Source: Cristatella mucedo | Lineage: Eukaryota > Bryozoa > Phylactolaemata > Cristatellidae | Length of the DNA stretch: 64,000 bases | Direction: 5' to 3' | NCBI GenBank assembly: GCA_009760855.2 | Contig: WPIO01000014.1 | Coordinates: forward strand, 2,347,501 to 2,411,500 | In this document: positions 14,575 to 62,839 of the stretch, piece after piece | Numbering within the stretch: the stretch's first letter is position 1 | Layout: the number at the start of each line of letters is the position of its first letter | The notes under the pieces: generated by a model | Database searches by the model: none | Told to the model about the DNA's origin: nothing | Seen by the model: only the letters and a program-made list of their open reading frames with translations | Position numbers and translations under genes: made by a program

Positions 14575-14652
<78 letters not shown>

Positions 14653-26134: not shown

Positions 26135-27150
26135 CACTTTCTAGATTTAAACAAAGATTTAAACCAACAGATGTATTTTAAAAAGAGTTTTACAAGTTAA
26201 AGAATAACGCCTTTTTTGGGCAAAACCACGGAGAATGTTAGGGAAAGGGTTAACATAGAATTATTTGATTTGAAGTATGAAAAGGATATAACTTTATCTT
26301 CTAAGAGAGTTCTTAGTTCAAGATTTAAGGACAGAAGGATATTCAATCAAGACTTAATTGGCATTGAAACCAGCAAATCAGAAGTGAGATTAAATAAACC
26401 AATTTACCTTGGATTCATCATTCTAGAGATATAAAAACTGATTATGCAGGATTATTATTATGGCACGCTGAAGGACTATTATGGCGACAAATTAGTGCTT
26501 GCCTATACAGATACAGATTCTTTTGTAATGAAGGTAGAAACTGATATTGCTTAAAAGGATTTCTTAGACTATTTGCCCTACTTGGATTTATTTGGATACT
26601 CTCCCAATCAAGAAAAATGTAAGGCAGAGGGCTTTGCAGAGGCCATGGCAAAGAACAAGGGTGGTATTGGCAAGTTTAAGGAAGAAATAGCAGAGAAATT
26701 TACGGTTGATCCTTTCCGAAAGATTTTATAAGGGACAAGGACGGAGAGAGGAAAGTGAAATCCGTGGTATTGGATGAGAGAGTTTTCTCAAGACCAAAAC
26801 TTTATTCTATGCAAATAGTGAAAACCACGAAGGAAGGGAAAGAACTGAAGTCTTCAGGCTAAAAAAGTAAACGGAACGAAAAAGCAAGTTGTAAAGAAAT
26901 ATTTTACTCGTGCGCATTATTTAGAATGTTTAAAGACAGGGGAGGATAGGTACTTTGAGCAAACGAGATTGCAATCACTTAATCACATAATTGTTACTAT
27001 GGCCCAGAGAAAGAAAGCATTATCCGCATTTGACTCAAAACGCTATTGGCTTAATTGTGCTATTCACTCCTCAGCCTATGGTCATTACAGGATAGCTAAG
27101 GCAATATTGAAGGCAAGGATCCTGGTTTCTGGGCGCCATGCCAAGATTAA
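26135..27150 (+). pseudogene. Viral protein-primed family B DNA polymerase, C-terminal part
   Basis: The enzyme would replicate a linear viral genome from a terminal protein. Visible in order are a GKTTENVRERVNIELF block (about 26218), an LNKPIYLGFIIL block (about 26390), the palm motif C AYTDTDSF with both catalytic aspartates (26501-26524), an RLQSLNHI segment (about 26970) and a terminal SAYGHYRI motif (about 27070). The N-terminal exonuclease/TPR half is missing. Several in-frame stops and frame changes (for example near 26432, 26550 and 26728) make it a pseudogene. It is the gene nearest the host DMTF1 promoter, transcribed away from it. Confidence 0.88.
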
Positions 27151-27180
27151 TTAGGTCATTTTGAAAAAAATACCCTAGTA

Positions 27181-27455
27181 TAGAAGACGATCGCTGACAT
27201 TCTTCGCGATGAGCCAGAAGAATTTTTCACAGCGCTAGTATCAAAGGAACTCAAGACTCAACTTCCAGCCGAACAAGTGTTATCCGAGGAATTAGCAATG
27301 TAATCCGACTCTGACGATCCCGAATGCGACTCTAATAAAGAGTCAGAATCAGACACCGATTATGAATCTGAGATAGAACACTACTCCCACGACGTTTTCT
27401 ACTCAGAACCTGGTTCAGCTGTAAATAGTGAAACTGATATAGAACTTAATTAAAA
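27181..27455 (+). pseudogene. Acidic viral ORF, unknown function
   Basis: The frame is open apart from one stop near 27301. The C-terminal part is strongly acidic (SDSDDPECDSNKESESDTD). It may be the polymerase C-terminus or a separate small gene; no family was recognised. Confidence 0.45.
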
Positions 27456-27476
27456 ATTATTTATTATTATATAGCA

Positions 27477-27761
27477 ATGGACGTCTCTCGAATTCTTAGT
27501 TGTGATCAATCACGAGATCTAGTACTCAAGATTTCGCAGCAAAAGTTGAAAGGTGCAGATCCTCGAATAGTCAGGCATTCTCTTGACAAACTAATCCCTG
27601 ATCTAGATACATGCTATCTTGACATCCTAGTAGAGATCTGTGACACACGTGATAGGCTAATGGAATGTCGGAGTAAAGTAATCACAGTGTCAACCGAAGA
27701 CGAAAACAAGCAGAAGAAACCCAAGACCAAAGCTGGTGTCCAGATCGTAACATCAATGTAA
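27477..27761 (+). CDS. Intact 94-codon viral ORF, unknown function
   Basis: This is an uninterrupted ORF from ATG to TAA, a rarity in this block. It is largely alpha-helical and charged, with DSRDLVLKI-like segments near the N-terminus and a Lys-rich C-terminus (KQKKPKTK). It follows a short AT-rich spacer after the acidic ORF. I recognise no homologue; it could be a small virion or DNA-binding protein. Confidence 0.5.
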   Translation: MDVSRILSCDQSRDLVLKISQQKLKGADPRIVRHSLDKLIPDLDTCYLDILVEICDTRDRLMECRSKVITVSTEDENKQKKPKTKAGVQIVTSM

Positions 27762-27849
27762 TTAGCTTATCGTCGTTTGTAGTGTTTGTTTCTTTGTGTG
27801 CATGTTTTTATCATTGTATAAGGAAATTTCCACAGCATCATAAGCTATT

Positions 27850-28349
27850 GATCCGCGTCTAGCAACATCTTCAACTCTTCTGAAAGCGCACGTAGATTAT
27901 CTTGTTAAGTCAAAGATGACTGCTTATGACGCACGAAGACTTGATTCAGACATCTCAGTGATGACAGACAATTCAGTAACAAAAATCCTACTTTGACGAA
28001 TGGGATGCCGAGGCGCAAAACGTAATTTCAGCTGGTATCACTGAAGTTAGTCTGATCTAGACGGAACTGTAAGCAGCAGTAATCTGTAAGGTCTAAGGTT
28101 GATAGCCTTCTCGATACTCCTGGTAAAATCTCGGGATACACAAGGTGGATTGCCAGCCAATTGCCAACCGTATCAACTGTAATCCCCGGCGGAGTATCAG
28201 GAATGGAGCCTGATATTTCTTTTATCGTGAAAGACGAATGTTATGCCATTCTACCAGACATCTCAGACGGAACAAGTGCGAGGCAAAAGGCTGCTATTGC
28301 TGCTTCTGCGGCTTCAACTGCTGCTTCATCTACGGAAGTTCCGCAGTAA
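27850..28349 (+). pseudogene. Viral ORF with Ala-rich C-terminus, frameshifted
   Basis: Coding-like sequence occurs in successive frames: a DPRLATSSTLLKAHVDYL segment, then from about 28085 an open frame with GYTRWIASQLPTVSTVIPGG and a C-terminal Ala/Ser run (about 28290-28345). The stop at 28349 lies 22 bp before the next ATG. No family was recognised; gene spacing suggests a collinear viral cassette. Confidence 0.5.
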
Positions 28350-28370
28350 AAAAAGAGTCTTACATACAAA

Positions 28371-28850
28371 ATGATTCCAATAGAAACAAGATACACTGAC
28401 GGACTAACAGAAACCCAGGGCCAACAATTTTCCAATTTTAAGATTTGTGTTTTCCCGATGGGCCGCATTGAAGACATTAGAACGTCTTTGCTTGAATCGT
28501 TGAAACCAGTGTTTAAATACAAAGCTCTGAGGGTTTCTTGCACAGATCCAAAAATGTCCGGCGTTTTTTTCAAGTTTGTGATGGTTCCATTTTCGAAGAG
28601 TTTCTAAAAGATTTAAAAATTAAAACAATTGGTTGTATCAGATCAGCAGCATACTCTAAAAAAATGAGACAACCAAAAGACTATAAAAGGCATTAGATTC
28701 AAGACTGTTCAAAGGATTTATGGAACTAAAGGAATGTATACAGGAATCGTTGAACTGGAAAGTTTAAACATCAGAAATTGCAAGTTCTTTCCATAGAAAT
28801 ACAATTGAATTAATTTTAGATAATACAACTCCTGTAATTAATCCAACGTC
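28371..28850 (+). pseudogene. Viral ORF, unknown function, frameshifted
   Basis: The first 78 codons are open (MIPIETRYTDGLTETQGQQF onward) and a stop follows at 28605. A second frame continues with EEFLKDLKIKTIGCIRSAAY from about 28597. The fragment does not resemble a family I can name. It ends just before minus-strand fibre-like sequence. Confidence 0.45.
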
Positions 28851-28859
28851 AATATGATT

Positions 28860-29299
28860 TTCTGGAACCGGGAGAATATACTTGACGGGGCTTTTTATTA
28901 CTCCATAACTTTATGAAAATGTAATAATTTTTGGGGGTTATATCAATAATATTTCCACTTATTGTAGGAGAATCAAATATAATAAAGTTGCGTATTTTGT
29001 CTGCTAATAGCGAAATGCCATTTCCGCATGCAAAGTTAGTGCGATTTTAAAATCTTGTTGAGAAAATTAAAAATTAGAAACTCTGTATATGTAATTAATA
29101 CGTCTTTTTTATTCTTTATATAAACTCCTATAACAACTTCTTTGCTCTTAAGAAAAGAACCGGTATTTTTATTTCTAACAATATAAAACGCAGCAGAATT
29201 AATCACATTTGTAACCCCAACGTTTCTCTATTTATGTCATGGATCTTAATTATAAGTCTTGAGTAAATTGATTTGTGTATTTGAACATAGAACAATCCC
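28860..29299. other. AT-rich viral-block DNA, nothing assigned
   Basis: Probably the decayed 3' end of the minus-strand fibre gene. No reading frame with recognisable motifs was found. Confidence 0.35.
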
Positions 29300-31457
29300 G
29301 ATAGAGAACTATCACCTGTTATTCCAGCATTAATTACTCTTGTAACAACAAGATTACCACACAAAGATGGAGAATTATTTCGTAAAAACGACTAGAAATA
29401 ACGAGTTTGTAAATACACCGCCAGCAATATTTCTCCAAACAATCAATTTATTTACTTTAAGTCCTCATCTATCTCATCGCCATATTTTTCAACTTTGCTG
29501 TCAAGATATTCTTTTGCATCCATATTTTTTCTATTTACAGGATTTAATACACCAACATATTTTTTAGAGCTATCCGAGATATCTCCTCTTACTCCTAAGT
29601 CAGAATCTTTTCGAACGTAATTATTATCAGAACTATTATTATCAAAGTTTTACAGTCTGTTTCTAAACTATCTACAGGAATTCCCTGATTTACTATTCTG
29701 TTTTCTGCAAAGTTAAGAGTTCCTTGCATATCTAAGTTCTTCGCGTTAACATTTTATCACAACACTATATAAACTTTGATTGTTATTGTTACATTATAGA
29801 AATGTTCTGGTACCTCAGGAGGCGAACTTCATATTAGTTTTTTATGTGCATCTAATGTGCAAGCCGTGCAGAAAGAATCATTACCAACACTAATTGGTTG
29901 TACAGCCGGAATAACTAATCTTTCAAAAGTATTCCCTGGCATTGCATATGTTGCGCAAACAGCATATATTCCCCTAGGCACTAAACAATCTGGTAAATTA
30001 CTAAATCATTAACTGTCAGAAATATAAAATAATTTAGTAAATGTTACTATCATTATATTTCAATCTATTACTGAATTTAATTAACTAAGTCTAACTTCAT
30101 ATATTGGGGCCCACCGGGCGCTCAAAATTCTAACAGAATTTCCTCGCATATCTAGGGCTCCAGTTATAGTTCCTCCAGTTGTTTTAACAAACTTGGTGTC
30201 TATGCAAATTTTATTTGCAACATCATTATCTGAATGCGGAAGACTACTAACATTGATCAATCAACAGTTAAAGTTCCAGTAATTTCTCCGCCTGTCAGGG
30301 CCAACTTTGGGTCAGCGTAGTCTTTTCTTGCTGCATCACTTGGATTAACAGGATTAGCAAGGTCTATTACTCGTTTCCTATTCATATCAAGATCACCATC
30401 AGCCGTAGTTCCTCTAGAAACTTTAGTAACAAAGTTAGTATCAATATAATTTCTGTTTACCGCATCCCCATGATCAACATGATCACCGAAGTTTTGTATC
30501 GGCTTTCCATTCATATTTAAGTTTCAAGCAAGTATATCACCAGTTCTTTGAATGTATTTCCTTGTGATTCTTTTCTTCTGTAGCCGAGAGACACTTCTAT
30601 ACTTCCATACTATACTAAGAAGAAACTCACCGTAGCTTACAGACTTATAAGCTGTAAAGTTATTAATTACGTATCTGCAGGAACCATCGGTTCCAATCAC
30701 CAACATCAAAGTTCCAGAAACTCCGTAAATATTATCACTTGTTAACTCAAGGAGCAGACCTGTTTTGTCAGAGCACCACATTACGTTGAAAACAATACCA
30801 AAGTTATCAGAAGTTCCAGGAATAAATGTTGGAATAGAAGTAGCAAAACCTACTTTCTTACCTCTGGTGTCAAACACTCGCATGTCTGCAGGAGTTAGCT
30901 GAACAGAGAGCTCTCTGTCCCAGTGCCGTTAACTTTTGTGCCAAAGTTGCCAAGCTCTAGAAAACTTGGAAAACTCGTAACTTTGATATACTTAAACCTG
31001 CATTGTTGTCTAGCAGTATTAACATATTGCTTACTCATTAGCTCCGAGTCTTGCACATTCGTAATTGTATACTTCCCAAGATCAAGATTTCCTTTAGAAA
31101 CGCCAGCAAATAATTGTGATACTGACTTCAATAAGCCGTAGTTAATGGTTTTGTAAGGTCTAAGGCTTGTAAATCCAGTGCCTTCAGAAGAATTACCAGA
31201 GATTCCTTTAATGCTTTCGCAGTTCAGTTGGAGCTCATAATTCCAAGCTTTTTCGGCAACAATGCGCTAAGTAAACCAACCGTTGCAATTTTTCCTGAAA
31301 CGTTTGAGACTACTTGTCCACCAAAGTCCGAACTTACCGCGTATGAAAGATTTATTGCATCAGTGTCTGCTACTGTTGTTCCTAGACTTGGGATTTTGTT
31401 TAATCTACTGTCCAAGTCTGAGAAAAGCATTCCATTGATCTTTGAAATTAGCTCCAT
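29300..31457 (-). pseudogene. Phage-like trimeric fibre/attachment protein, degenerate
   Basis: The minus-strand frame starts at ATG 31457 (MELISKINGMLFSDLDSRLN). It contains repeated tail-fibre-type units in which an 'LDMN..I..L' strand is followed by 'DAVN..Y(I/V)' segments. Examples are GNLDLGKYTITNVQDSELMS (about 31095), NLNMNGKPIQNFGDHVDHGD, DLDMNRKRVIDLANPVNPSD (about 30390), ALDMRGNSVRIL (about 30155) and LDMQGTLNFAENRIVN (about 29725). Such units build long beta-structured fibres in phages and some eukaryotic dsDNA viruses and would mediate attachment. Many frameshifts and stops are present. Confidence 0.75.
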
Positions 31458-31504
31458 TTATATAGACGGAATGATAAGGCCTTCGCAAACTACAACTAAA
31501 GAAT

Positions 31505-32720
31505 TTGCTTAGTGGTAAAGGGATCAGAGTAAAATTTGAAAATATCGGTTACGGCACCAAAGTGGAGTTGAACAAAGCGTCTATGAACAAAATTAAGAAA
31601 GCTTTGATTACTAGGACTAGAACTAGGAACCAACTCTTGAAGGAAATGCTTGGGGTGAACTAGCAAGACAGTATTAAGTCGGGCTTTGACACTGCTAAAG
31701 AAATAGTTTTGGGAACAAATACGGCAGCTGAAGTAGTTTCCATGGGCGTTACCAAAATCGTGCCTAAGGTTGCCGCAAAACTTTTATTGGTCGCGTAGAA
31801 TAAAATCGCTGGAATAGTTCCAAAAGTCCTCAGTTCTTTGAAAGTAATTGCATCTGCTAAACAAGTTTTCGGCGGTTTTCTTTAGGGAGTGACGGGGATC
31901 GTTGACTTAGGATTGTCCATCAAAGAGGTAGTTGACAACTTAGCATCAGGAAAGTATGAAGATGTGTTTTGGCGCACAATTCCTGAACAGATTGAGGGAT
32001 TAAAGGGAATGATCTCGTCTTTAGAAGTTGGTTATTACATAAACGAGATATTACTTGAAGCTGAAAGAATTAATTCTGATTGGCACGAAGATCAGGGTCA
32101 ATTCTTGAGTGAGTGTTTGGTGAAAATCCTGATTTGTCAGCAGCAGAACTTGATCCGAAGTCTTGGAGTAAGAACTTCCTTGAAGTAAGAGGCGGATTCT
32201 TGCCCGAGATTTCAGCTATCGCTGTAAGTATAGCTGCTATTATTGATGCTGTGGGCACTGCTGTGTTAGTAGCAGTAACCGTTGCTGGCATTGCTAAACG
32301 AATAACTAACATATCAATGTACACGGCAAAAGCTCCACCTATAAATACGCACAGTGAAAGATTATCTGCTTTAGAATTGCAAAGTGCTCGTCCGAGAAAT
32401 GCTATCTCTGCACTGAAAGCCCAGCTTGAAATTCTTATCAAAGAGATTGACATTGATTGCTTTCATGACCTTGGTCCCGAGGTCGTGGGTTCGATTCTGT
32501 GGTGAGCGATTCTTTATCGCCACTGCAAGCGGTGGTGATAGCCGTAAAGGCTCTTCAGTCGCAATACAAAAAGAGGCTGTTGAATCAGCTAGGATTTTTT
32601 TTATATGAGCCAAAAAGTCGACATGAAGGAAGTGCATGGGCGTCTGGATTATATAAACAAAGGAAATAAGCTAGCAGAGGAATCAGGAGTTAGCTATTTA
32701 CAAGAGTCAATGAGGCAATA
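31505..32720 (+). pseudogene. Viral membrane-associated protein, interrupted by a SINE
   Basis: A coding-like frame runs with scattered stops (near 31662, 31798 and 31885). It then continues through about 31889-32110, and in another frame to 32457, including a hydrophobic stretch ISAIAVSIAAIIDAVGTAVL (about 32208-32270) that is a good membrane segment. The SINE at 32458-32604 splits the gene, and coding-like sequence resumes with SQKVDMKEVHGRLDYINKG. It is possibly a virion membrane-active or minor capsid protein. No firm family. Confidence 0.5.
32458..32604 (+). repeat. tRNA-derived SINE family A inserted in a viral gene
   Basis: The copy starts within the tRNA-like part (TTTCATGACCTTGGTCCC), keeps the B-box GGTTCGATTC, the GCGATTCTTTATCGCC body and the AATCAGCTAGGAT end. 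It is nearly identical to the 2247 copy, so the insertion is younger than the loss of viral gene function was old. It separates two parts of the membrane-protein frame. Confidence 0.88.
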
Positions 32721-32805
32721 AAAAAAAGTTGAGACAAGCACTATTGGAAACAAACAGTGCGATTATAAGAGTGAGTAATTGATGTTATTAGCTAGGCTTC
32801 ACGCC

Positions 32806-33140
32806 GAGGGGCGATTGTGGTGTGCACATGCGGTTTCTGCTGCTGCAATTAGCGAAGCGCCTGATACCAATGCACATGCCTCAGCTGTAGCCATTAGTTA
32901 AGCAATTGAAGCAGCGAAGCGTCGGGCTACTAATGCAGGTTATATTTCGTGTCATCTGCTGCGATTGATCGAGCTCTCATATATGTGCCCGTTGATAGGA
33001 ATAAAGCAGATTCTCGTTTACCGCGCACGAGCGCCCGCTGTGTCTCCGTGAGACTCCCACTAGAACAGCCACCGCTGGAGACACCGTCACACAACACGAT
33101 CGCAAGAGGAGATTCACAGAGAGATCTTAAAGCTCAGGGA
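32806..33140 (+). mobile_element. LTR-like fragment plus gag start of a retroelement
   Basis: This is homologous, in opposite orientation, to 53220-53482. Shared blocks are ATTAGCGAAG-GCCTGA-AC (about 32850), CATGC-TCAGCTG, GCAGC-AAGCGTCGGGC and the coding-like CVSVR-P-EQPP-ET segment (about 33035-33085). It is a truncated insertion within the viral block, ending shortly after the presumed gag start. Confidence 0.65.
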
Positions 33141-33290
33141 TGAACTGAAACGTAAGTGCAATAATTAGAAGTCTGTGCATCTTACGAGTTTGTTCTCTTC
33201 TGTATACGATATTCAAAATTAAGCTTTGCAAATTAAAGATGAAGTTGTATTGTTTCTAGATCTTTCACTTGTGCGGCTGCAATAGGTTTA

Positions 33291-33720
33291 TCAAATAAAC
33301 CGAGAAAGTAACTTTAGCCATCTATACAAATTCTTGAGCGCCATTTTCCAATTTTGCGCTTGAAAATCCACTCCGATAAACCGTGACGTGTTATTAAGGT
33401 GTTTATTTCTATTCCTCATATTCTTTGAATATAACGCTTCTCCTAAATTAACTATTGCATTATTCGAAGGATTTCCATCAACGTGGTCCAACTCATACAT
33501 GAGCAATTCTCCAGTCGTTAGAAGCCATGCAAGTCTGTGCGCTAAATATATTTTCCCGTAAATTTTTATTACTCGATAACCATCAAATCTTATATAACCC
33601 GCCTCTGTTCCCTGTCTAGCAGTTCCCCTGAGATTCGTTCTTCAAAGAAAAGCACCCGTCTCTGCATTGTAATCCAACAACTCCTTAAATCGAGCACGGA
33701 ATGCCGATACTTGAATTTGA
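33291..33720 (-). pseudogene. HNH homing-type endonuclease with AP2-like tail
   Basis: On the minus strand the order is typical of phage HNH_3 endonucleases: an N-terminal FKELLDYNAETGAFL segment (about 33690), GYIRFDGYRVIKIYGK, a catalytic-region LAHRLAWL (about 33550), ELDHVDGNPSNNAIVNL (about 33440-33490), SKNMRNRNKHLNNTS and an AP2-like FIGVDFQ...WKMAL. The HNH histidines and asparagines are present. One in-frame stop follows the first segment and the C-terminus is shifted. Such enzymes cut DNA and spread as selfish genes in viruses. Confidence 0.85.
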
Positions 33721-33806
33721 TCCATTTTTTATACAGTAGTTTCCTTGTCCACTAAATAAAAAAGTCACATAAGTATTGAGGAATGACATAGTATTACGTA
33801 ACAAGT

Positions 33807-34427
33807 TTGTCGCTCTCAGAGCATCAAAAAATAATCCTTGCGCAAAGTAGTAATCCAGTTTCGCTAAGGTTTTCCATGGACGCTTTGAAAGGACCTGACA
33901 AAATTCTCGGAAAGAAATTTCCACTTTCGAGAATTGAGAAGCACAGGCTTTCTAACTCTGGATTAATCCTGCGTTTCAGTGCGAGCCAGCTCAAAGTGAA
34001 TCACAGTAGAAGTACTGGCTTTCTAGAGAAGATTGCAACCAAAATCTTTGGTGGCCGTAAACAACACTTGCGGCTTCCTATTGGTAACCCAAGAGAATAT
34101 GTTCATGATGGCTATTTTAACAAAACGGGCAAGTATTACTTTCCTAAGTGCCTTTCACGAAATTCAGAGGACGTTGGGACCAAGGGTACACAGGGGTAAA
34201 TTATCTCGATCGAGCTGCCTTAAATCCCGATTACATTTATGGTGAAACTTCAAGTGACCCAGAGCTAAAAAGAAGAGAAACGAGACACATTTCGGACTCA
34301 GTTTTGGCAGCGGCGGCAGCTAGGATTTCATTGGACCCAAGACAACCCGATTATGCCCAAAACGATGCAAAAACTGTCGCTGCAGTTATGGCGGCAAAAG
34401 TCAAGTTTAGGACTAGGCCTTTATGAT
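33807..34427 (+). pseudogene. Viral ORF, unknown structural-type protein
   Basis: The first frame (33807-34199) includes SNSGLILRFSASQLKVNHSR and a basic middle. A second overlapping frame (34148-34427) continues with YTGVNYLDRAALNPDYIYGE and an Ala-rich helix. Together they look like one frameshifted gene. No family was recognised. Confidence 0.45.
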
Positions 34428-34587
34428 AGAAGTCTAGTTGACAAAATGCTTGGCATAACTCGCAAGAAAACACAAAAAACTGAAATAACCTAAACCAATT
34501 TTGTGTATTTGCTTTCACCCATTCTCATTCTCATCTCATTCTGCTACGCTTGGTCTCATCTAGCTCTCTTTTTCACTCATCTAATAG

Positions 34588-35085
34588 CCAGCCGGATCAA
34601 ATACTTCGCTTTCTGAGCTTGGAGCTCTGTAGATCTTAACTTGATCAAGTTTAAGTCTGAGATTTAATCTTTGCTCTCCTTGGTAATATTCTTTCGAAAC
34701 ATAAATTCCATCGAGGAGTCCATTAATACAAAAATCATTTCCATACTTCTAAATTAATTCTTCCGGTCCCGAAAATTTAATAGGCCGACCGATACTTGTG
34801 ATTGAAGAACAGCGCGGGTCATGTTCCAAAATCAATTCGGATGCCAATCGCTGCACTTTGTGCTACGTCATAGCCCTTGTATTCAAGCTCAGCACATGCT
34901 TGAGCAGCGATTGACTGAATCATTGGCTCAATCTCTGGAGTAATATACATGTACGCATTGTAATATGGCTTTGAATCTTTCGAAGCCTTTTCTTCAAGAT
35001 GAACACTTGCAAGTCTTCCCTCAGGAATGATAACACTGGCATCATTAAGAATAACTGCTTTGCGTTCACATGTAGTTACTTCCAT
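34588..35085 (-). pseudogene. Viral ORF, possible single-strand DNA-binding protein
   Basis: An ATG at 35085 opens 89 codons (EVTTCERKAVILNDASVIIP onward). After stops near 34815 another frame carries DGIYVSKEYYQGEQRLNLRL and KLDQVKIYRAPSS to a stop at about 34588. The final beta-rich, basic segment is reminiscent of OB-fold ssDNA-binding proteins, but this is only a suggestion. Confidence 0.4.
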
Positions 35086-35089
35086 TTCT

Positions 35090-35793
35090 TTTTTATATAA
35101 CCATTTTTTCTGTTTAAACCATCATAATATCGATTCCGTCATTGTCCCAAAGTCTGTCAAACTCATTAGTTTCAAGAAAATGAGACATCTCGATCCGCAG
35201 TTTGTTTCGTTGTAGTCTTGCAACTGATTTGGAAAACTAGACACTTTTCCAAAATATTCGACTAATTCAAGCATTGGTTCTGCTTCAAATGAGTCAAATT
35301 AAAAGCATTGTTGTCCTTGTTTGCAGCATGCTATCAAATGGAAGATTTCTCGCTCTGTCTTACCAGTGTTACAAATGAAACACTCTGTCTCCCGTGGTTT
35401 CATTAGGGCATGCTCATTTCTCGCAAATACTCCTCTAAAGTTTGGTATACCTAGCTTTGTGACATATTCCAGCCGTTCAGTGTCTGTTAGTGCTGAGGAA
35501 TTTCTTTTTTCAATTCGCTAAGTGCTTTATGTGGTTCTTGCAAGAGCTCTTCCTTGCTCATTTTTTGTGCCAGAGCCCCTAGGTTTGCCATGTGTTAGAA
35601 CTCCTTCTCACCTAGGTTTACCATGTGCTATGACTCCTTACCCTCTAAGTTTTCCATGGGTTAGAACTCCCGCACCTTTTTCAGCAGCATGTCGTAGTTT
35701 AACGGACTTTGATTTATTGTGCTCGCAAGTTGCACAGATTGCTTTCACAATACCTCTAGGACCTTTTGGTCCTTGAATTTCACTTTATTCATT
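35090..35793 (-). pseudogene. Adenain-like cysteine protease with N-terminal repeats
   Basis: The minus-strand C-terminal part has YVTKLGIPNFRGVFARNE, a His in IFHLIACCK, FDSF and NCGSRC. These are the order and spacing of adenain/Ulp1-like virion maturation proteases, with His, an acidic residue and the catalytic Cys. One stop lies just before FDSF. The N-terminal part has a CATCEHNKS motif and three 33-bp repeats encoding THGK(P/L)R. The enzyme would process capsid precursors. The gene abuts the ATPase divergently. Confidence 0.78.
35578..35676 (-). repeat. Three 33-bp tandem repeats inside the viral protease gene
   Basis: The units at 35578-35610, 35611-35643 and 35644-35676 each keep CTA(A/G)G(G/T)TT-CCATG and a GACTCC or GAACTCC block. 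On the minus strand they encode an 11-residue unit centred on THGKPR, so the repeats keep the frame. Confidence 0.85.
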
Positions 35794-35858
35794 GTGAAGA
35801 TTGTCAGTATGTTTTTTAAATATCAAACAGTAGATATTTCCTTCCATTCCTATATAGC

Positions 35859-36491
35859 ATGTCGATAGAAGTTAAAGGCGTTTGATTTTGGGGCAAGATT
35901 CAGCAACAGGTCATACAGAAACTTTGCTGAAAGTTCCAATTCGTGCGTTAGTGATAGGCCCTAGCAGATCAGGTATATCGCAGCTGGTTATGAATTGGAT
36001 CTCCTATGGAGTGCTGAACTACGACACTTGTACGGTAATTGCTTCTAGTCTTTACCCAAAAGTTATACAAAGGCTTCATGTCTATGACATACAAAACTAC
36101 AAAGAGCGCTTACGTTTGGATTGATGGAATTGGGCAAACGCCAGAAGTTGATTCATATAAGAACTGCAAGAATGTTGTTGTACTGGATGATGTAATGACT
36201 GAAGATCAAACAAAGATTCTAGATTTTTGTATATGAGAAAAACACAAAGGACCAAACATATCTTATCTTGTGCAAGGATTCAATAACATACCTAGACGCG
36301 AGATCAGAAACAACATAAACGCAATAATAATTTTCAAACAGAATGCATCTGATACCGAATACATTCGAGAAGCATACACTGGTGACATTGATCACAAGCA
36401 ATTCCCTGATTGGGTAAATTCTTGCACGAGGAATCGCTTTGGTTACTGTGTAATCGACTTAACAAAAACAGAGTCTGAAGGCCAATTTTGA
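35859..36491 (+). pseudogene. Viral DNA-packaging ATPase (FtsK/HerA type)
   Basis: From ATG 35859, after an early stop, the second frame shows PIRALVIGPSRSGISQLVMNW, a P-loop whose usual lysine is replaced by Ile. After another frame change near 36100, an intact Walker B NVVVLDDVMTED (36170-36206) is followed by IIIFKQNASDTEYI and FGYCVIDLT. The order fits A32-like packaging ATPases that pump the genome into capsids. The lost lysine and two shifts would abolish activity. Confidence 0.85.
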
Positions 36492-36529
36492 TCTGTAGAT
36501 GGTGATGGCCGAAAAATAATAACTTTTTA

Positions 36530-36758
36530 ATGAAAAGTAACAATATATATAGGACGATGCTCAAGGGTAGGATTTATTCAAGGCCAGGGAAGAAGTACCG
36601 CGGTAGTTTGCAGGAAGCAGTGGACTATAAGAAAATGTTGCGTGATTTGCAAAACTTTCATGATTCTACTGAGTTGCAGAATGACCTAGAAGCGCAGAGA
36701 CTTCAAACAGAAATTACAGCTAGGGACACAGCTAAAGCATATTTGGACCAGCGGGCGC

Positions 36759-36846
<88 letters not shown>

Positions 36847-37584
36847 AACTGGCAAATCTGGTAACCTGGTAGTCGAGAAACTGAAAAAAAGTTAGGCCGG
36901 CTCTTGCTAGACAAATTGAGAAAACCCAAGCAATAACAAGTTTGGATGCAGAACACGATGTGCCTCTAACTGTTGGCAGAGTTTCTAAAGCTATTCAGGG
37001 AAAGCAATATAAAAAAGCAATCCGAAATGCAAATGATGCGAAAACTAACGCTCCTAACGAACAAACCAAAAGTACTATTGATGCTATTCAGAAAGACATA
37101 GCCGAGCAACTAGGTATTAATCCGAGCACTGGCACTCAAAAGACTGCTCGTGTCAAAGCTTATAGCACATTGAAAGATTTTCCTCGAGGAAAAAGGTCGC
37201 TTGCCTGTGTTAAGCAAATGGGAAAAGATTATGAAGGAACTAGAAAAGAAGAAACAATACAGAGCGTTTACCAAAAATTGTCCGATGAGGATCCAAAACA
37301 CCGAGAACCAAAGAACAGACTCCGTGGAGAGCCTGTTAGTGTGACGTCGAGAGTAAAAGCTTTGGAAAAGGCCAGCATGAGAGTGACAGAAATTATTTTA
37401 ATTGCTAAGAATGAAACAGAAGTACTTGATAAATTAGAACTATGGGTGGCGTGAACTAGCTGTAGGGAATACAGGAGTAATAAGTTCTATTAGTGCTGCT
37501 GTAGATTACTTCGGGAAATCGCGGAAAGCACCTAAGAGTCATAATGCTAAAATCAACAAATTTCTGTATGACCTTAGTATATAG
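36530..37584 (+). pseudogene. Viral charged protein with an in-gene (GA)n tract
   Basis: It starts at ATG 36530 (KSNNIYRTMLKGRIYSRPGK onward). A coil-prone segment ELQNDLEAQRLQTEITARD is followed by the (GA)n run encoding Glu-Arg repeats, and then a stop at 36893. A second frame with DAEHDVPLTVGRVSKAIQGK continues to 37454, and a third resembles its end (NKFLYDLSI). Function unknown. Confidence 0.55.
36761..36845. repeat. (GA)n microsatellite in a viral gene
   Basis: An 85-bp pure GA dinucleotide run. In any frame it reads Arg-Glu, so it cannot by itself introduce a stop. Confidence 0.98.
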
Positions 37585-37586
37585 AA

Positions 37587-38345
37587 ATGAGTGAGCTTGT
37601 GAAAATTTCTCAGGAAATGTTGAAGAACACTTCAGCAATAAGAAGGTATGCTCAATCAAAGCCAGAACGATACATTTTTAAAATTTCTGGAACAACAAAT
37701 CCTGGTAAAATCTTAATAGATGACCCAATTATGTTTAGGAGCAAGAAGTTTAGGATCTGTTTCAAATAGTTTGCAGGCACTACTTCAGTGAAGAATATAA
37801 CAGATTCGAATAGTACTTATGTTCATAGAGTTTCTGGTGAATCAGAGCAAACAGCAACGATTAGGCCTGGAATTTATTCTGCTGTTTCAGATGATGTGAA
37901 CATTGGAATTGCTGACACAATAAATAATTCAATAACTCAATCAGGAGCAACTATAGACATATTTGAACTATGAATTGATACAGCTACTTCTAATTCGTGG
38001 ATGAAGATACCCGTGACACGGAAGTTTCTTGCAAACAAGTCTAGTGTTTCTAGTATTCTTGGTTTTAGTGGCTCTGCTTACACAAGAGATCCTCATTTTC
38101 GAACGCTTTACCCAAGTATTTATTATCAATCAAGTAAACTATGCGCCAAACACAAAACACAAAGGTTGTCTCTGAAAATGAAGTAGTTGTTTCTGATGTT
38201 AACTTAACAGTTGTGAATTGCAATTTGGTTGCAAATAGCTCAAATTACATAAACGGAGAAGAATCACAAGTGCTTAGAAATTTTGCTTACAATTTTTATC
38301 CCTGGGAATAAATGGTATATGAGCCAAATACTATCGACTATCATG
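37587..38345 (+). pseudogene. Viral structural protein A (minor capsid-like)
   Basis: Successive frames read SELVKISQEMLKNTSAIRRY (37587), then a beta-rich segment with ATIRPGIYSAVSDDVNIGIA (about 37855), then MKIPVTRKFLANKSSVSSIL, and NSSNYINGEESQVLRNFAYN (about 38240). The 'RPG-Y' followed by an Ile/Asn-rich helix resembles penton-type minor capsid proteins in general form only. The gene is interrupted at about 38350 by a repeat. Confidence 0.5.
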
Positions 38346-38349
38346 GTAA

Positions 38350-38885
38350 TGTAATGTAACGTATCTCCGTCTGCAATGTGGTTCGGCATACAGAATTCTG
38401 GCCCAGAACAACGCCAACGGTTTATAGTACAAGGCACGGAGCAGCAAGACGCACGACCGCCTTCGCCCCCTTCTCACACTCGAGTCTCCTTCCACTCCTC
38501 CGTTGACCCCGATGATTAATCGAGGACCACAACTGTGCAGCGGCCGATCCTGATGGTGAATTCACCATCTGGCCACCAGCGGTTACCGGCCGGTGTCCAT
38601 GCCACATCACAGGCTCATTAGAGGAGCCGGCATACACTCAAACTACATGCAACTCCACAAAGCCATAAAGACTGTGTGCGTGTTACGCAGGAGAGTTTTG
38701 TATAGCGCACTCACAGCCTAAGCGGCTTTCGGTACGCATTCGGTAGCCAACAGACTTCGTCTCACTCAACAAAGAGAAAGTAGGAAGCATAGCAGAGTCA
38801 GGAGAGCAGTTGAGCTAGTGAGTAGCATGGAAGCAGCAGCTCAGGACCGCTGAGAAGGATGAGCTATAGTCGGCAGCAGGAGGTA
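38350..38885 (+). repeat. REP1 dispersed repeat inserted in the viral block
   Basis: GC-richer DNA interrupts two viral frames. Its right part (from 38665) is shared with 1112-1275 and 1-130. The left part (38380-38640) contains no recognised protein. It could be a solo LTR or other non-autonomous element; target-site duplications were not convincing. Confidence 0.65.
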
Positions 38886-38889
38886 TAAT

Positions 38890-39595
38890 TGGTGAAACAG
38901 TTTCTAATATATTGATTGTTGTTACAAACCAAGATAAAAATTAGACTTTGGTTCACAGCAATTTACAGTTGTGATAGAAATTGTTGAAGTATAATATAAG
39001 AATATCAATAAGGTTAACTTGAACAACTGGTTCTGATTCAAAAACATTAAGTCCACCAATAATACTTAAGAAAAAGGGATTTAACAAAGTTGGGCCTAGA
39101 AGAGTAGAGTTTGTTTGCAATAACAAAATAATCTTGAATGTTGTTCAAGGTGTGAATGAAACACTGTGGTACAGAAGATCAATGACTGACCCAACATTAG
39201 TTTCAATTAAAGTTCCTCCTGGTTATTATGATCCAACGAAAATAACGAATACATTGAATGCCTCGCTTAAGCTTTTGCTAGATCCACAAAGTAAAAACAC
39301 AGACATACGAGCCAAGTCAAAAAGTGATACTGGAATTATGTTTTCTGTTGACTCAGATGATAAAATCATAATGCAAGTCGTTGGAGATAAAGTTGTGTTA
39401 CTTGGAAGTAATGCTTCTGGTTACAATGCTTCAATTGGTGACACAATTGGCTTTAATTCTAATGAACTGGGTTCGTTTGATCCCATAATGGTTGGAGCAA
39501 CACTTTATGAAGCAATTGACAAGGCTTTGTACTTTTCCGTAATTTACAAAGCATGGAACAAAATGAGCTTGCCAGACAACAAAGGAGTGAAATAG
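38890..39595 (+). pseudogene. Viral penton-like minor capsid protein
   Basis: The open stretch 39134-39595 (153 codons) follows a more decayed N-terminus. It contains TLVSIKVPPGYYDPTKITNT, the 'P-P-G-Y/T-(T)' element followed by an amphipathic helix seen in vertex/penton jelly-roll proteins, then DTIGFNSNELGSFDPIMVGA. It precedes the small membrane-active-like ORF and major capsid gene, a usual capsid cluster. Confidence 0.6.
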
Positions 39596-39650
39596 ATAAG
39601 CGTTGATTGTGACTTAGTTAATCCGGAAATTAATCACGTATAATATATAA

Positions 39651-39870
39651 ATGGGTTTCCTTAAACAGTGTCGTTCTTTGTACATCATTGATATAGCTGA
39701 TATAAATCCAGGGACAAAGTTTTCATCCATTTGCCAAACATAATATTTCCGCCAGCAAGAGGAGATATAGAAACGATAAGAACTTTCAGTGATAGTCTAA
39801 CAGACCAAAATGGTAATGACGTAAATGTTACGCCTGATGTAATGGTGACAATAGAAATTTCCAGATAGCA
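39651..39870 (+). pseudogene. Short decayed viral ORF before the membrane-active-like gene
   Basis: The frame from ATG 39651 (GFLKQCRSLYIIDIADINPG) shifts near 39725. It continues with RDIETIRTFSDSLTDQNGND and ends at about 39868. The family is unknown. Confidence 0.4.
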
Positions 39871-39877
39871 TAGAAGA

Positions 39878-40054
39878 ATGGGAAGTTATGCTAGAATTCG
39901 GCACAGTAGGATTACGGGCGGGAAGCATGGCTCAGGTGTTCTTGACAAAACTATTGACGGCATTGGCAACGTTGCTCCTGCTATCTCCGGAATGACAAAT
40001 ATTGGTGTAAACATCGCTAACAAAGGCATCGAAATCGCCAAGCGCGTGAACTGA
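39878..40054 (+). CDS. Small intact viral ORF, candidate membrane-active capsid peptide
   Basis: A 58-codon ORF, uninterrupted. The N-terminus carries RITGGK, which fits the (I/L/M)-X-G-G-X pattern cleaved by adenain-type proteases. The rest, with GVLDKTIDGIGNVAPAISG and NIGVNIANKGIEIAK, forms an amphipathic helix pattern. By analogy with adenoviral protein VI this could be a processed membrane-lytic component; this is inference. It lies between the penton-like and capsid genes. Confidence 0.45.
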   Translation: MGSYARIRHSRITGGKHGSGVLDKTIDGIGNVAPAISGMTNIGVNIANKGIEIAKRVN

Positions 40055-40064
40055 TCGAACTAAA

Positions 40065-40491
40065 AACAAAGAAAAGGTAGATCAAGAGTTCACCTTAAAA
40101 CGACGAGAGCTTTATGATGGAAACCTTGAAGAAGAGAAGCGGAGGACAGAGCTTGAGAATGCGAACTAGAGAAGCGTAAGAAAAAAGAAGACAATGACGG
40201 CAAGACAAAAAAGGTAGACCTTGAAATCAAGCTATGCTATGCTTGAGAAAATGAAACCAAAACAGAAGAGGAAGGCGAAAGTAGTGAAAAAAGAAGTAGA
40301 AGATTACTCTGAGACACTGGAAGAGAATGATCCAAAAGCGTACAAAGAAATATAGAAAGTCATTAAAGAGAAATCCGTTGCTGTTAAAGAACCAACGTTT
40401 GTTGCTTCGCCTGAACAACGAGGAAGACCTGATGGTTACGGAGGAGCAATGAAAAAATTAGGTGCAAGTCTTTACTTGCAGAGCAGAAAAT
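40065..40491 (+). pseudogene. Charged viral ORF, unknown
   Basis: A Lys/Glu-rich frame with stops near 40170 and 40350: EFTLKRRELYDGNLEEEKRR, MLEKMKPKQKRKAKVVKKEV and EQRGRPDGYGGAMKKLGASL. The composition suggests a scaffold or core DNA-binding protein. No family recognised. Confidence 0.4.
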
Positions 40492-40503
40492 AAATTTGTT
40501 ACT

Positions 40504-41428
40504 ATGAATAGAGAAGTGTGGCTAGTGCTCCGACTGATACAATTCTAGAACTTGGTGATCCAAGTTTGCCGAGGTATCCTATCAGGAACTACCAGTATCG
40601 TGAGTTCTACCAAAAGAATGGAGCCAAAATAGACGCGATTACAAACAAGCTAGTAACTTTTACTGTAGCAGAAGAAAAAAATCTGTGCTATGGGCTATCA
40701 GATTCTTATTTGGTGCTTGAGGGAAAAATTCAAGTTCCGGGTGCAAATTATACTTACGTGGCACCTAATAGAAATCTGGCAGTAGGTCTTGTTAATAATG
40801 CAGGCACTTGGATGTTTAGCTCAATGAAATTTAGACTTGATGCAGAGGAGATTGAAAGTTTGGCCTTGCACAAGGACCTCGCGAAGTTTTAACCTTAATG
40901 GGTCTGCTAACCTACCCAAATGACTACAATAGTACAGAAGGTCCAGCAACTGGATGGGAAAAGTACGAAGCTAGTGCAATTAATGATATGTATACTGGCA
41001 TTGGAAATTATTCAAGCCCTAATGCGTCTAGAGCAACTATTTCGAATAATGGCTTCATTTACAGGAGAGGTCTTACTCTTGTTGATACCGCAGGAATATT
41101 TAGTATTTCTCTTTGATTGTCCGGATTCTGTGCTGATATGAACAGGATACTCTACAATATTCCTTTTACCCTTAAACTCACTCAAGTTAGAGGCGCAGAC
41201 TATGATGCTATAATGACTGGAGCAACAGGAATTACTCGTAATACTGCTAACGCAATTGCTACAAGAGGAGCAGTTGTAAATCAAGACGATGGTGTTTGGA
41301 CAGCTTTGAAGATGGCTATGTCAAAAATGAGACTCTCGGCTCCGTGCGTTACTCCTGCCCTTAGCATTTCAAGGAGATTAGCAGAAATCTCTAGCGAGCG
41401 TGGAAAAAGCTTGTGGAAAAAACAGTGA
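40504..41428 (+). pseudogene. Viral major capsid protein, N-terminal and central part
   Basis: The first segment includes LPRYPIRNYQYREFYQKNG and NNAGTWMFSSMKFRLDAEEI. A frame change near 40895 leads to YEASAINDMYTGIG, NNGFIYRRGLTL, and after a stop at 41114 FCADMNRILYNIPFTLKLTQ followed by VRGADYDAIM. This block, with the preceding 'F-I-S-L' strand, is characteristic of double-jelly-roll capsid proteins of Polinton/adintovirus-type viruses. A KMAMSKMRLSAPCVTPALSI strand follows. The frame ends at 41428, where LINE DNA begins, so the C-terminus is lost. Confidence 0.82.
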
Positions 41429-42692
41429 TGCCAAGGCGAGATGAGAGGCGCTCTAGAAGAACTTTGTGATCAATAGAATCAAAAGCTGCCGAAAGATTGA
41501 GCAAAACAAGCAGACACACTTTACCCAGGTCTGCATTCCTATTTAGGTCGTTGTACACCCTAAGCAATGCTGACTCTGTGGAGTGATTAGCTCTAAAGCA
41601 AGACTAGAACTTACTAGAAGGTTTGAAGTTTCGATATATGAGTTCAGCTGGTCCTCCACGACCCGTTCCAGTGTCTTTGATAAGAATGGTAGAAGGGAGA
41701 CTGAGCGGTAGTTGCTCAAGTTCTCAGATCGGCGTGAAGTGGAGTAATGTGGCCACGGCTTACTCACGACAGACAAGCCTAGCTGCAGAGTTTTGCACCA
41801 GCTGCAATCGCCTGATCGCACATGATGGTAGGCAGGTAAGCAGTGAGTTGCAGAAGTCGATATGGGATGTCACGAATGCATGGACCAACTTGAATGTGGT
41901 ATCCTTATGTAAACACAGCTCGAGTTTTAGCAATGTCATGAAGCTGAAAATAGGCAGATTTGACTGTGGAGCTGATGTGGTCGTCTAACAAGAGGACGCT
42001 TTGGAATATGACACCTAGATTTCGAGCTGATTCCACAGGAGCTATGCTGGCAGAGCCATTTTTGAGCGTCAGCCTTTCCAATTTCTGAATTACTCTGGGT
42101 TTGCCCAAAACTAGTAAGTTAGTTTTATCATCGTTTAGTTTCAAAAAATTTGCTGCCATCCATATGCAGATGTCATTAATACATGCAGCAGGTGAATTGA
42201 GAGATTTCGAGGTGTTTGAAGGTTGGAAGGGATCACAGCAAAGGTACAACTGAGTGTCATTCGCATAGAAGCGAAAGCCTAGATTGTGCTTGGCAACCAC
42301 ATCATCAAGAGGGAGAGTATAAACCATGAAAAGAACTGGTTCTCTTGGTCTAGTGTCGCTATCTTGAGAAGTGGCCTGACTACAGCATTTTTGAAAGGTG
42401 CTGGGACAAGACCAGAGGCTAATGACATAATAATGATGTTAGTTATGCATGGCAGCAGTAGATTAAGGCAACGTAGGAGCAGGACAGTGGGAATAGGGTC
42501 TAGAGGACTTGTTGTCTTCTTTGATTGGGAAACAAACTTCAGGACTTGATCACTAGTGACCTGCTTAAATGTAGACATCGAGGTGCAGCCAGGAATCGGG
42601 TAACAGCATTCTAGTGGGGATGTTGTCATTGCAGGGATGGGCTCCCAATGTTTGCTTGGTTTACATGTGTTAGGGCTAAGAGATTGTCTTTA
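41429..42692 (-). mobile_element. CR1/L2 LINE fragments, minus strand (left copy of the duplication)
   Basis: Two LINE pieces are fused. The segment 41727-42692 encodes RT-region pieces such as KTTSPLDPIPTVLLLRCLNL, then after an internal deletion LGFRFYANDTQLYLCCDPFQ, and LDDHISSTVKSAYFQLHDIA. The segment 41429-41726 is part of a second element (SVSLLPFLSKTLERVVEDQL, AAFD region). It aligns with 58771-60601 but lacks what corresponds to about 59077-59632. It terminates the viral capsid gene. Confidence 0.82.
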
Positions 42693-42699
42693 CTAATAA

Positions 42700-43166
42700 T
42701 TTGAAATATTCGTACCACGATTGAACCGTGAAGATGCGTCTGTTGGGTACGTTGCAGCACGAAATGACAGAATTCCCACGAAGATATAAACATATATGCC
42801 ATTAAGATGTTTGGTTAAGTTACTGGAGGCGAATCTACTGATGTCAAAGGTATGGCTTTTATTAATGCCGGGCCTGGAGTAAATCTGACAGATGCTGTTA
42901 ATGTTTCCCAAATTAGTAATTATGTTAGTAAATCGGGAGATATGATGACAGGAGACCTAAATATGAACAGCTTTGCTATTTTTTCGGTTTATTTGAAATC
43001 AAGAACTACTACTCGTACTGTTCTGCCTGATGATTTTTTCGCTAATTATGGCGGAATGAAAAGAGATGTTGTATGGTAGCCCTGCAACAACAACGCTAGA
43101 TATGAGAAATAATTTAATAATTTATGTTGCTGAACCTGGTAATCCTAGTGATGTTGCGACGAAAAG
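42700..43166 (+). pseudogene. Viral fibre fragment 2, left copy
   Basis: This corresponds to 60606-61448 but with about 380 bp missing (61097-side junction near 42823). It encodes INAGPGVNLTDAVNVSQISN and SGDMMTGDLNMNSFAIFSVY, the same type of fibre repeat as at 29300-31457. The frame is cut by the LINE at 43167. Confidence 0.75.
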
Positions 43167-43438
43167 CTGTTTAGGACAGCATTTAGTGGGTCCCTGTGAT
43201 TCGTCCTTGATGTGCTTGTGCGTGCTGACACTGTGCATGCTGCCACTAACCACATTTGCATGCTGACCCTGTGCATGTCACCCCTAACCATATTATTCAT
43301 TTTGTTTGTTTTTCAAGCATGATTTTACTTACTATTCTATTGCATATCACTTTGCAGCAAATGTAAAGCGCCTAGAAAGAGTTTAAGTTCTCTGAGGGCG
43401 CTTTATCAAGTGCAATATTATTATTATTATTATTATTA
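43167..43438 (+). mobile_element. Young CR1/L2 LINE insertion, 5'-truncated
   Basis: The insertion begins GTTTAGGACAGCATTTAGTG (end of LINE ORF), runs through the 3' UTR and GCGCCTAGAAAGAG tail, and ends in an (ATT)n run. The right copy (61440-61460) lacks it and reads straight through from GACGAAAAGCT to ATGTTAAAAAG, so this is an insertion with an identifiable empty site. No clear target duplication beyond a base or two. Confidence 0.9.
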
Positions 43439-43880
43439 TGTTGAAAAAGCAATAAAAAATAACAGAAGTTATACAAGTTTCGTTTAATCCAAGGTCTATG
43501 AATTCGATTATAGAGACTTCAGTTAATTATTCATGGACTAATAGAAGTGCTCCACCACGAATAATTCTTAGCGTGATAGTTGTTGGGAATTCTAATTGTG
43601 TTTTTCTGCGGCCCAGTTCCAATACTATAGCTGTTTTAGGAGAAATAGGCGCCATAAATACTGTAAACAAGCGATAGTTGATATTTACTCAAACGGGTCC
43701 TTTAGAATGGATAAAGAAGATAACAGTAGATACTGGATCAGAATTCAAAAGAGATTTCAAGAAAGAAATGAATAAACATGAAACGCGCGAGATAGAAGCG
43801 ACTAGCAAGAAAAGTGTTACGTTACTTGAGAGAATGAATCGAACGATAGCAAAATGAGCTTTCGTTGCTTATTTTAATAA
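43439..43880 (+). pseudogene. Viral fibre C-terminus and following gene, left copy with deletion
   Basis: Positions 43439-43670 match 61453-61677 (VNYSWTNRS, GAINTV). Then the sequence jumps to what lies at 62496 (KQAIVDIYS). About 820 bp present in the right copy is therefore missing here. Both parts are degenerate. Confidence 0.7.
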
Positions 43881-43897
43881 TTTAATAATTTAATTTC

Positions 43898-44520: not shown

Positions 44521-44590
44521 CTATCTTAGATTGGACATCTTTCTATATTAACTTTGAAATGTTTTCTTACTTTAATATTTAACTCTCTGC

Positions 44591-44730
44591 TGCAAGTAGT
44601 ATGTAAATGAATGGTGTGGAGACTAAGGACACATGGAGATTGATGAATCTACCAAATGCAGAGACAGGTAGATGAAGAGTATGGACATGTGCCCCAGACT
44701 CCATACCATTCATTTACATACAACTTGCGG
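44591..44730. repeat. Imperfect inverted repeat (about 44-bp arms)
   Basis: The arm 44591-44634 pairs with 44686-44730 (ATGTAAATGAATGG against CCATTCATTTACAT, with few mismatches), enclosing about 50 bp that partly pairs again. A single transcript would form a long hairpin. The same structure is at 63533-63672 in the right copy. Confidence 0.8.
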
Positions 44731-60890: not shown

Positions 60891-60949
60891 AATGGTTAGA
60901 GAAGAGCTTGATAAATCTAAATTTGTGATAGCAAATCATATATTTATAG

Positions 60950-62800: not shown

Positions 62801-62839
62801 GATATTACAAGAACAACAGGAGATGAACCAGCAAAAGCT

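What the first reader, a model, noticed from the sequence alone, without database searches (positions are those of the whole stretch)
26135..41428. Degenerate Polinton/adintovirus-like dsDNA virus integrated beside a DMTF1 promoter
Polymerase, packaging ATPase, adenain-like protease, capsid, penton-like and fibre genes occur together, so this is a virus-derived block rather than scattered hits. It lacks a recognisable integrase and terminal repeats, and its left end cuts the polymerase at the host promoter region. It may represent a lineage not described in this host group.
Basis: partly seen in the sequence, partly recalled or inferred. Interest (0 to 1): 0.9.

Follow-up and report, generated by a model that had tools for sequence, protein, structure and literature searches.

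The report
Dead Polinton with hairpin-forming ends
This stretch of an unnamed animal's genome holds the broken remains of a virus-like jumping element of the known Polinton/Maverick type, and related copies in the same genome show that its very ends can fold back on themselves as hairpins, a feature I did not find described for this kind of element.

Summary
The element runs from about 26,195 to 44,725. On motif reading it has an integrase (43,670-44,174), and its right terminal inverted repeat lies at 44,552-44,725. The left end is lost. The gene order recurs, whole or in part, at 6 of 6 other loci examined in this genome; capsid and polymerase queries give 49 and 44 match rows, the terminal repeat 19 places. 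Of 18 termini 13 begin exactly AGTAGT, the published Maverick end motif; 2 of 3 paired copies share a 5-6 bp flank repeat. So it is a decayed member of an old multicopy Polinton/Maverick (adintovirus-like) family. No database match supports the capsid genes; they rest on position and selection. Unexpectedly, the terminal 133 bp is itself an inverted repeat (18 of 18 beat their shuffles) whose arms covary (24 cells changed on both sides against 11.5 by shuffling, 0 of 500). A 1.1-kb piece with the right terminus is duplicated 19 kb away. The host is unidentified (572-Mb assembly), so 'new in this host group' cannot be judged.

The parts
26201..27300 (+). PolB, C-terminal part only (motif B GKTTENVRERV, motif C YTDTDS, C-terminal SKRYW..AYGHY), in several frames; everything upstream of motif B is missing
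   Evidence: stop-to-stop pieces; 44 match rows in the genome, the window and split copies included; pieces 26201-26431 and 26555-26728 are 73% and 52% identical to the unbroken 438-aa piece L037:871-2184. Motif names recalled; Pfam gives only PF03175 E 0.011 for the related piece L039
27450..28604 (+). unknown protein(s) u1
   Evidence: open pieces; collinear in other copies
28700..31457 (-). fibre-like gene with repeated motif of the kind DLxMNxxxIxNLxxPVxxxDA
   Evidence: piece 30260-30523: Phage_T7_tail E 8.2e-8, PHROG tail fibre 5.4e-11
31478..32456 (+). unknown protein u2
   Evidence: collinear in copies
33294..33641 (-). HNH endonuclease (HNH_3)
   Evidence: Pfam 7.6e-9, PHROG_99 2.9e-29, 46% to phage HNH, 54% over 75% to an unnamed public protein; relatives in two other copies (L018 62% over 37 aa, L014 38% over 87 aa)
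35125..35517 (-). adenain-like cysteine protease, two pieces (motifs recalled)
   Evidence: pieces; 52-75% identical pieces in 6 of 6 other copies; no Pfam hit
35876..36488 (+). FtsK/A32-type packaging ATPase, two pieces; Walker A here reads GPSRSGIS; one other copy has GPSGFGKS (L020) and one has Walker B VVVLDDLM (L011) (motifs recalled)
   Evidence: no Pfam hit
36506..38183 (+). u5 and u6, unknown proteins
   Evidence: collinear in copies
39023..39865 (+). penton-like (minor capsid) gene, by position and pattern
   Evidence: pieces 67% and 69% identical in two copies, dN/dS 0.51 and 0.60; no database match
40512..41425 (+). major-capsid-like gene, three pieces; the 3' part is not seen in the window
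   Evidence: 49 match rows in the genome, the window and split copies included; dN/dS 0.26-0.37 against other copies; no database match
41426..42812 (-). LINE reverse transcriptase insertion, followed by a remnant (42649-42750) of a YqaJ-like nuclease gene; it lies where other copies have the capsid 3' end and the nuclease gene
   Evidence: YqaJ domain in another copy 26.0 bits, cut-off 22
42813..43669 (+). second fibre gene with a 270-bp repeat inserted (43168-43437)
   Evidence: YadA_stalk E 5e-4, below that family's cut-off; its duplicate shares repeats with the minus-strand fibre
43670..44174 (+). integrase, decayed, with an internal deletion relative to the other copies (VDTGSEF ... ERMNRTI)
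   Evidence: rve E 0.066 and 0.18 for pieces of other copies, not significant
44140..44520 (-). u8, unknown protein
   Evidence: found in 4 of 6 other copies; no Pfam hit
44552..44725 (.). right terminal inverted repeat; its outer 133 bp (44593-44725) is a fold-back hairpin ending ...ACAACT
   Evidence: 87% inverted match over 175 bp to a left end; fold z -9.64
59631..63986 (+). duplicate of the right part (LINE, nuclease remnant, fibre, integrase, u8, repeat and host flank), with a more complete integrase (62041-62704)
   Evidence: blastn 95-99.7% in pieces; same flank beyond the terminus

Best explanation
A dead, 5'-truncated copy of a Polinton/Maverick-type endogenous dsDNA virus (animal adintovirus-like). 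Inferred life cycle: the integrase inserted a linear genome, making a 5-6 bp target duplication; a protein-primed PolB copied it from the terminal repeats; and capsid, protease and ATPase packaged it. Shown here: collinear gene block in sister copies, paired termini, a short flank repeat in two sister copies, and purifying selection on several frames before decay. Gene identities of the hallmark genes are motif readings. In this family the ends are also hairpin-forming palindromes whose arms change together. I infer that the hairpin takes part in end recognition or end copying while the element is linear or single-stranded. That step is inferred, not shown.
For: Collinear gene block at other loci, from the PolB end to u8 on C110 and C33. 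PolB motifs A, B and C in an unbroken relative. AGTAGT-type termini; paired repeats around PolB 8.3, 17.0 and 22.1 kb apart, the 17.0-kb one also around a capsid match. Published end motif (AGT)2//(ACT)2 and 6-bp duplications in vertebrate Mavericks. Shared 5 bp at C55 and C653. dN/dS 0.13-0.60 in 11 of 13 pairs. Hairpin covariation and strong folds in unlike terminal sequences.
Against: No significant database match for PolB, integrase, ATPase, protease, penton or capsid in the libraries tried for each; motif assignments are recalled. The copy itself has no left repeat and no testable target duplication. One of three paired copies (C310) has no matching flank, and three trial pairings on C130 have none. 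Penton dN/dS is only 0.51-0.60, and a planned out-of-frame control computed nothing. Hairpin arms could be kept alike by conversion; several of the 18 repeats are near-duplicates; the number of pair types does not exceed shuffling.
Confidence: 0.9

Rival explanations
1. Unrelated insertions (several viruses or transposons) happen to lie side by side.
For: LINE and short repeats are inserted in the block; the HNH resembles phage enzymes.
Against: The same order recurs at other loci; terminal repeats bracket polymerase and, on C310, capsid; the HNH has relatives in two other copies.
Confidence: 0.02
2. The terminal hairpin is a separate miniature transposon that happens to sit at the ends.
For: The 133-bp unit has its own AGTAGT...ACTACT ends, like a small element.
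Against: Only 19 places were found genome-wide (19 of 19 candidates scored), three pairs of them bracketing this element; homology to left ends runs inward beyond the hairpin; a third sequence type ends about 95 bp before an ORF start that resembles the one after the C310 repeat.
Confidence: 0.1
3. The arms stay complementary by gene conversion within the palindrome, with no role in replication.
For: Conversion acts readily on close inverted repeats (recalled); three copies (L058, L063, L064) pair worse with their own arm than with most others.
Against: Does not explain why a palindrome sits at the tip in three unlike terminal sequences.
Confidence: 0.35
4. A Polinton-like virus, virophage or bidnavirus relative rather than a Polinton.
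For: YqaJ-like and HNH accessory genes; a gene order unlike most vertebrate Mavericks.
Against: It has both a PolB and, on motif reading, an rve-type integrase, and Maverick end motifs; bidnavirus repeats are reported not to form hairpins (PMC4061559, passages).
Confidence: 0.07

Closest known systems
Vertebrate Mavericks/Polintons (Barreat and Katzourakis 2021, PMC8097293; abstract, Results part 1 of 2 and passages seen)
   Same: PolB, ATPase, protease, integrase, major and minor capsid-type genes (here by motif or position); 17.0 and 22.1 kb between repeats (8.3 kb in a deleted copy) against a mean of 16.9 kb; (AGT)2//(ACT)2 ends; most copies decayed
   Different: Here PolB, ATPase, penton, capsid and integrase share one strand and of the hallmark genes only the protease opposes them (a fibre gene, HNH, u4 and u8 also do), whereas most vertebrate Mavericks have two modules on opposite strands (the Xenopus tropicalis elements have both modules on one strand); here also HNH, YqaJ and two fibre genes, and hairpin-forming ends
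Adintoviruses (definition in the preprint PMC11071296, passages seen)
   Same: retroviral-type integrase, PolB and a gene set read here as adenovirus-like
   Different: The defining reciprocal BLASTp of Hexon and the PolB OTU domain could not be tested
Parvovirus-type terminal hairpins (recalled)
   Same: self-complementary ends, here about 130 bp
   Different: No parvovirus replication gene was recognised here; PolB is read as protein-primed type

Membership tests
Polinton/Maverick | protein-primed family B polymerase | tested here: met
   by motif reading: motifs A, B and C in order in one unbroken frame of relative L037, motifs B and C in the window; motif names recalled, Pfam PF03175 only E 0.011 for L039, PDB nothing
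Polinton/Maverick | retroviral-type integrase | tested here: inconclusive
   motif reading positive: QAD...VIDV and VDTGSEF...ERMNRT cores in the window copies and relatives; rve is hit but not significantly (E 0.066 and 0.18); PDB nothing
Polinton/Maverick | adenovirus-type protease | tested here: inconclusive
   motif reading only; at least one piece found in 6 of 6 other copies; no Pfam or PDB hit
Polinton/Maverick | packaging ATPase | tested here: inconclusive
   Walker A and B read in relatives; no Pfam hit
[quoted passage not shown]
   no match; fold of the penton piece alone useless, pLDDT 30
Polinton/Maverick | terminal inverted repeats with (AGT)2//(ACT)2 ends | tested here: met
   13 of 18 termini exactly AGTAGT, 5 one base off; three pairs bracket a polymerase match; the window copy keeps only the right one, which is one base off
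Polinton/Maverick | 6-bp target duplication | tested here: inconclusive
   2 of 3 paired copies share 5 bp (6 if one terminus is set one base inside), C310 none, three trial pairings on C130 none; not testable in the window copy
Adintovirus | Hexon and PolB reciprocally recognisable by BLASTp; OTU-like PolB N-terminus | not testable with these tools
   no adintovirus sequences could be reached

The most novel reading that the evidence does not exclude
A Polinton lineage whose linear genome ends in self-complementary hairpins kept by compensatory change, so that end copying or end protection uses folded tips in addition to a protein primer; a bridge between protein-primed and hairpin-ended DNA viruses.
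Probability: 0.25. Interest if true: 0.8.

Novelty: new variant of a known kind. Interest (0 to 1): 0.5.

Why it matters
The element itself is of a kind already well known in animals. The hairpin ends are not something I found described: how Polintons start copying their ends is, as far as I recall, unsettled, and a folding tip that recurs in three sequence types gives a concrete, testable feature. The gene order and the HNH, YqaJ and double-fibre cargo add a variant architecture.

Tried and rejected
Searches that gave nothing significant, by gene. Capsid: Pfam, PHROG, PDB, protein set (52), IMG/VR (25). Penton: Pfam, PHROG, protein set (24). PolB: Pfam, PHROG, PDB. Integrase: Pfam, PHROG, PDB, IMG/VR (41). 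ATPase: Pfam, PHROG, IMG/VR (26, 40). Protease: Pfam, PDB (36, one of two pieces). The IMG/VR scans gave two loci that by their ORFs are unrelated (L001 tailed-phage-like, L002 another virus-like contig); an IMG/VR DNA pattern for a recalled PolB C-terminal motif gave 0. None of these had a known-Polinton positive control, so the negatives are weak. AlphaFold on the penton piece alone was useless. My idea that u6 (37,578-38,183) is a second penton was not supported by the one piece compared. My first guess of a hagfish or lamprey host was dropped when the assembly proved to be 572 Mb. In one search, 5 of 6 predicted left-end stretches showed no long fold-back (one of these, L045, starts inside a terminus already found); of 30 control stretches two scored 36-37 and one 28, against 48 for the hit. 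The out-of-frame control announced in the script computed nothing. An earlier count said 16 of 18 termini are AGTAGT-like; the letters give 13 exact and 5 one base off.
Full report
What was checked. Six-frame stop-to-stop pieces show these genes, broken across frames. Names of the hallmark genes are motif readings from recall.

An integrase, by motif, lies at 43,670-44,174. It is decayed and lacks an internal part that other copies and the second copy in this window (62,041-62,704) keep. A right terminal repeat lies at 44,552-44,725: it is inverted and 87% identical over 175 bp to the left end of another copy and 80% over 142 bp to a second. The left end is truly lost: the polymerase begins at motif B near 26,201, next to a CpG-rich stretch upstream of a DMTF1-like gene on the minus strand.

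The element is one thing. The window's own genome (572,011,866 bases, 688 contigs, unnamed) was searched. The capsid query returned 49 rows (40 of 395 candidates scored) and the polymerase query 44 rows (40 of 158); both counts include the window and copies split into several rows. The terminal repeat returned 26 rows at 19 places (19 of 19 candidates), the window's two among them. Around six other capsid copies (18 stretches) the order PolB-u1-fibre-u2-u4-protease-ATPase-u5-u6-penton-u7-capsid-fibre-integrase-u8 recurs at mostly 65-86% identity. It runs from the PolB end to u8 on C110 and C33 and from u1 to u8 on C676. On C11 it runs from u1 through the capsid gene, with nothing matched in the downstream stretch. 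On C77 it runs from the protease to the start of u8, with only a dispersed repeat matched upstream. On C409 it runs from the PolB end to the capsid gene with large parts missing. The terminal repeats pair as ends around a polymerase match at C55 (8.3 kb, internally deleted), C310 (17.0 kb, with a capsid match inside) and C653 (22.1 kb). C55 and C653 have a shared 5 bp outside both ends; C310 does not, and three trial pairings on C130 do not.

What kind of element. Relatives carry PolB motifs A, B and C (L037), Walker A (L020) and Walker B (L011) of an ATPase, an integrase core and AGTAGT-type ends. The vertebrate Maverick study reports (AGT)2//(ACT)2 as the commonest end motif, 6-bp duplications, two gene modules on opposite strands in most elements, and 96% decayed loci (PMC8097293; abstract, Results part 1 of 2 and passages seen). 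Significant database support exists only for accessory genes: HNH, fibre and, in a relative, a YqaJ-like nuclease (26.0 bits, cut-off 22). The profile and sequence searches made for the hallmark genes did not reach significance; the best hits of the expected kind were PF03175 E 0.011 and rve E 0.066. The capsid and penton names rest on position, size and conservation. Frame-wise comparison of 13 pairs of unbroken pieces gave dN/dS 0.13-0.60 in 11 and saturation in 2 (codons in stretches under 35% local identity were dropped first, and the intended out-of-frame control computed nothing). Most values, though less so the penton ones (0.51, 0.60), say that these frames were proteins under selection while the lineages diverged.

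The ends. In the window and in relatives the outer 133 bp of the terminal repeat is an inverted repeat running from AGTAGT to ACTACT. Single-strand DNA folds have z -9.64 (window), -9.55 and -3.95 (two relatives), -2.75 and -1.85 (the two ends of the C110 copy, where 1 and 9 of 200 shuffles fold as well) against 0.60 and -0.34 for two controls, and -5.52, -8.39, -8.54 and -6.45 for four more that I chose. Of 19 places I used 18 (the window duplicate is identical and was dropped). In 18 of 18 the own-arm score exceeds the best of 200 single-base shuffles. Exchanging inner arms between copies reaches the observed sum in 4 of 20,000 permutations (18 copies) and 5 of 20,000 (14 after removing near-duplicates). 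On the alignment, 12 of 30 pairs show changes on both sides and 24 cells do, against 6.2 and 11.5 by shuffling (0 of 500 each); slid versions reach at most 7 pairs and 7 cells. Against this: the number of further pair types (20 against 19.3) does not exceed shuffling, and for several copies other copies' arms fit better than their own (15 of 17 for L063). Such shuffles do not remove relatedness. Two other sequence types keep the fold-back shape: the C110 copy (right end 40 against a maximum of 20 in 300 shuffles; left end 21, reached by 3 of 300) and the C550 copy, whose arms share 24 of 26 bases with each other but only 19-20 of 26 with L041, the palindrome ending about 95 bp before an ORF start resembling that of the C310 copy; it was the only one of 6 predicted left-end stretches with a long fold-back. 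Three literature searches showed 12, 10 and 8 papers of 137, 65 and 52 holding the terms; no title or abstract start in these lists describes hairpin ends in Polintons. I looked for the word inside three of them: one says bidnavirus repeats do not form hairpins (PMC4061559, passages), one uses it for Helitrons (PMC6431247, passages) and one for a giant virus (PMC12747079, passage). That is a limited search; the original Polinton and Maverick papers were not read.

How it most likely worked. Integration by the integrase and protein-primed copying follow from the gene set (established knowledge of the family). The hairpin could aid recognition by the terminal protein or integrase, or allow a folded tip to repair or copy the end. 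The covariation is shown; the role is inferred, and conversion between the arms remains a serious alternative.

History. Left and right repeats of one element differ by 0.114 (C55), 0.090 (C310) and 0.191 (C653), so these insertions are probably old. Both copies in the window carry the LINE next to the nuclease remnant, so I infer that the right part was duplicated, with its host flank, after the LINE came in. The duplicate lies about 19 kb away: 1,147 bp at 99.74% (62,840-63,986) beside stretches at 95-97%.

Verdict. A decayed member of a known kind with a variant layout and unusual ends; host group unresolved.

Noticed in passing
43898-45044 and 62840-63986: Duplicate at 99.74% identity directly beside duplicated stretches at only 95-97%; a patchwork suggesting gene conversion or a second, recent duplication.
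   Followed up: partly
33294-33641: HNH endonuclease resembling phage HNH enzymes (46%) and unnamed public proteins (best 54% over 75%); relatives in two other copies of the element, one between u2 and u3 as in the window.
   Followed up: partly
L009:300-713 (minus); remnants at window 42649-42750 and 60555-60656: YqaJ-like viral recombinase nuclease after the capsid gene in other copies; only a remnant beside a LINE in the window.
   Followed up: partly
17980-18054, 43219-43294, 46908-47046: Repeat with a 38-bp tandem unit TGCATGCTGACACTGTGCATGCCACCACTAACCACATT near LINE tails.
   Followed up: no
13847-16853 (minus): DMTF1-like gene only 65% identical (37 of 57) to the solved DMTF1 Myb repeat; from recall this is low for a jawed vertebrate, and the assembly is 572 Mb, so the host may lie outside that group.
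   Followed up: partly
L034:567-1103 (minus): Polymerase-like piece with a YTDTDS motif beside a copy of this family but clearly different from it, perhaps a second Polinton lineage in the same genome.
   Followed up: no
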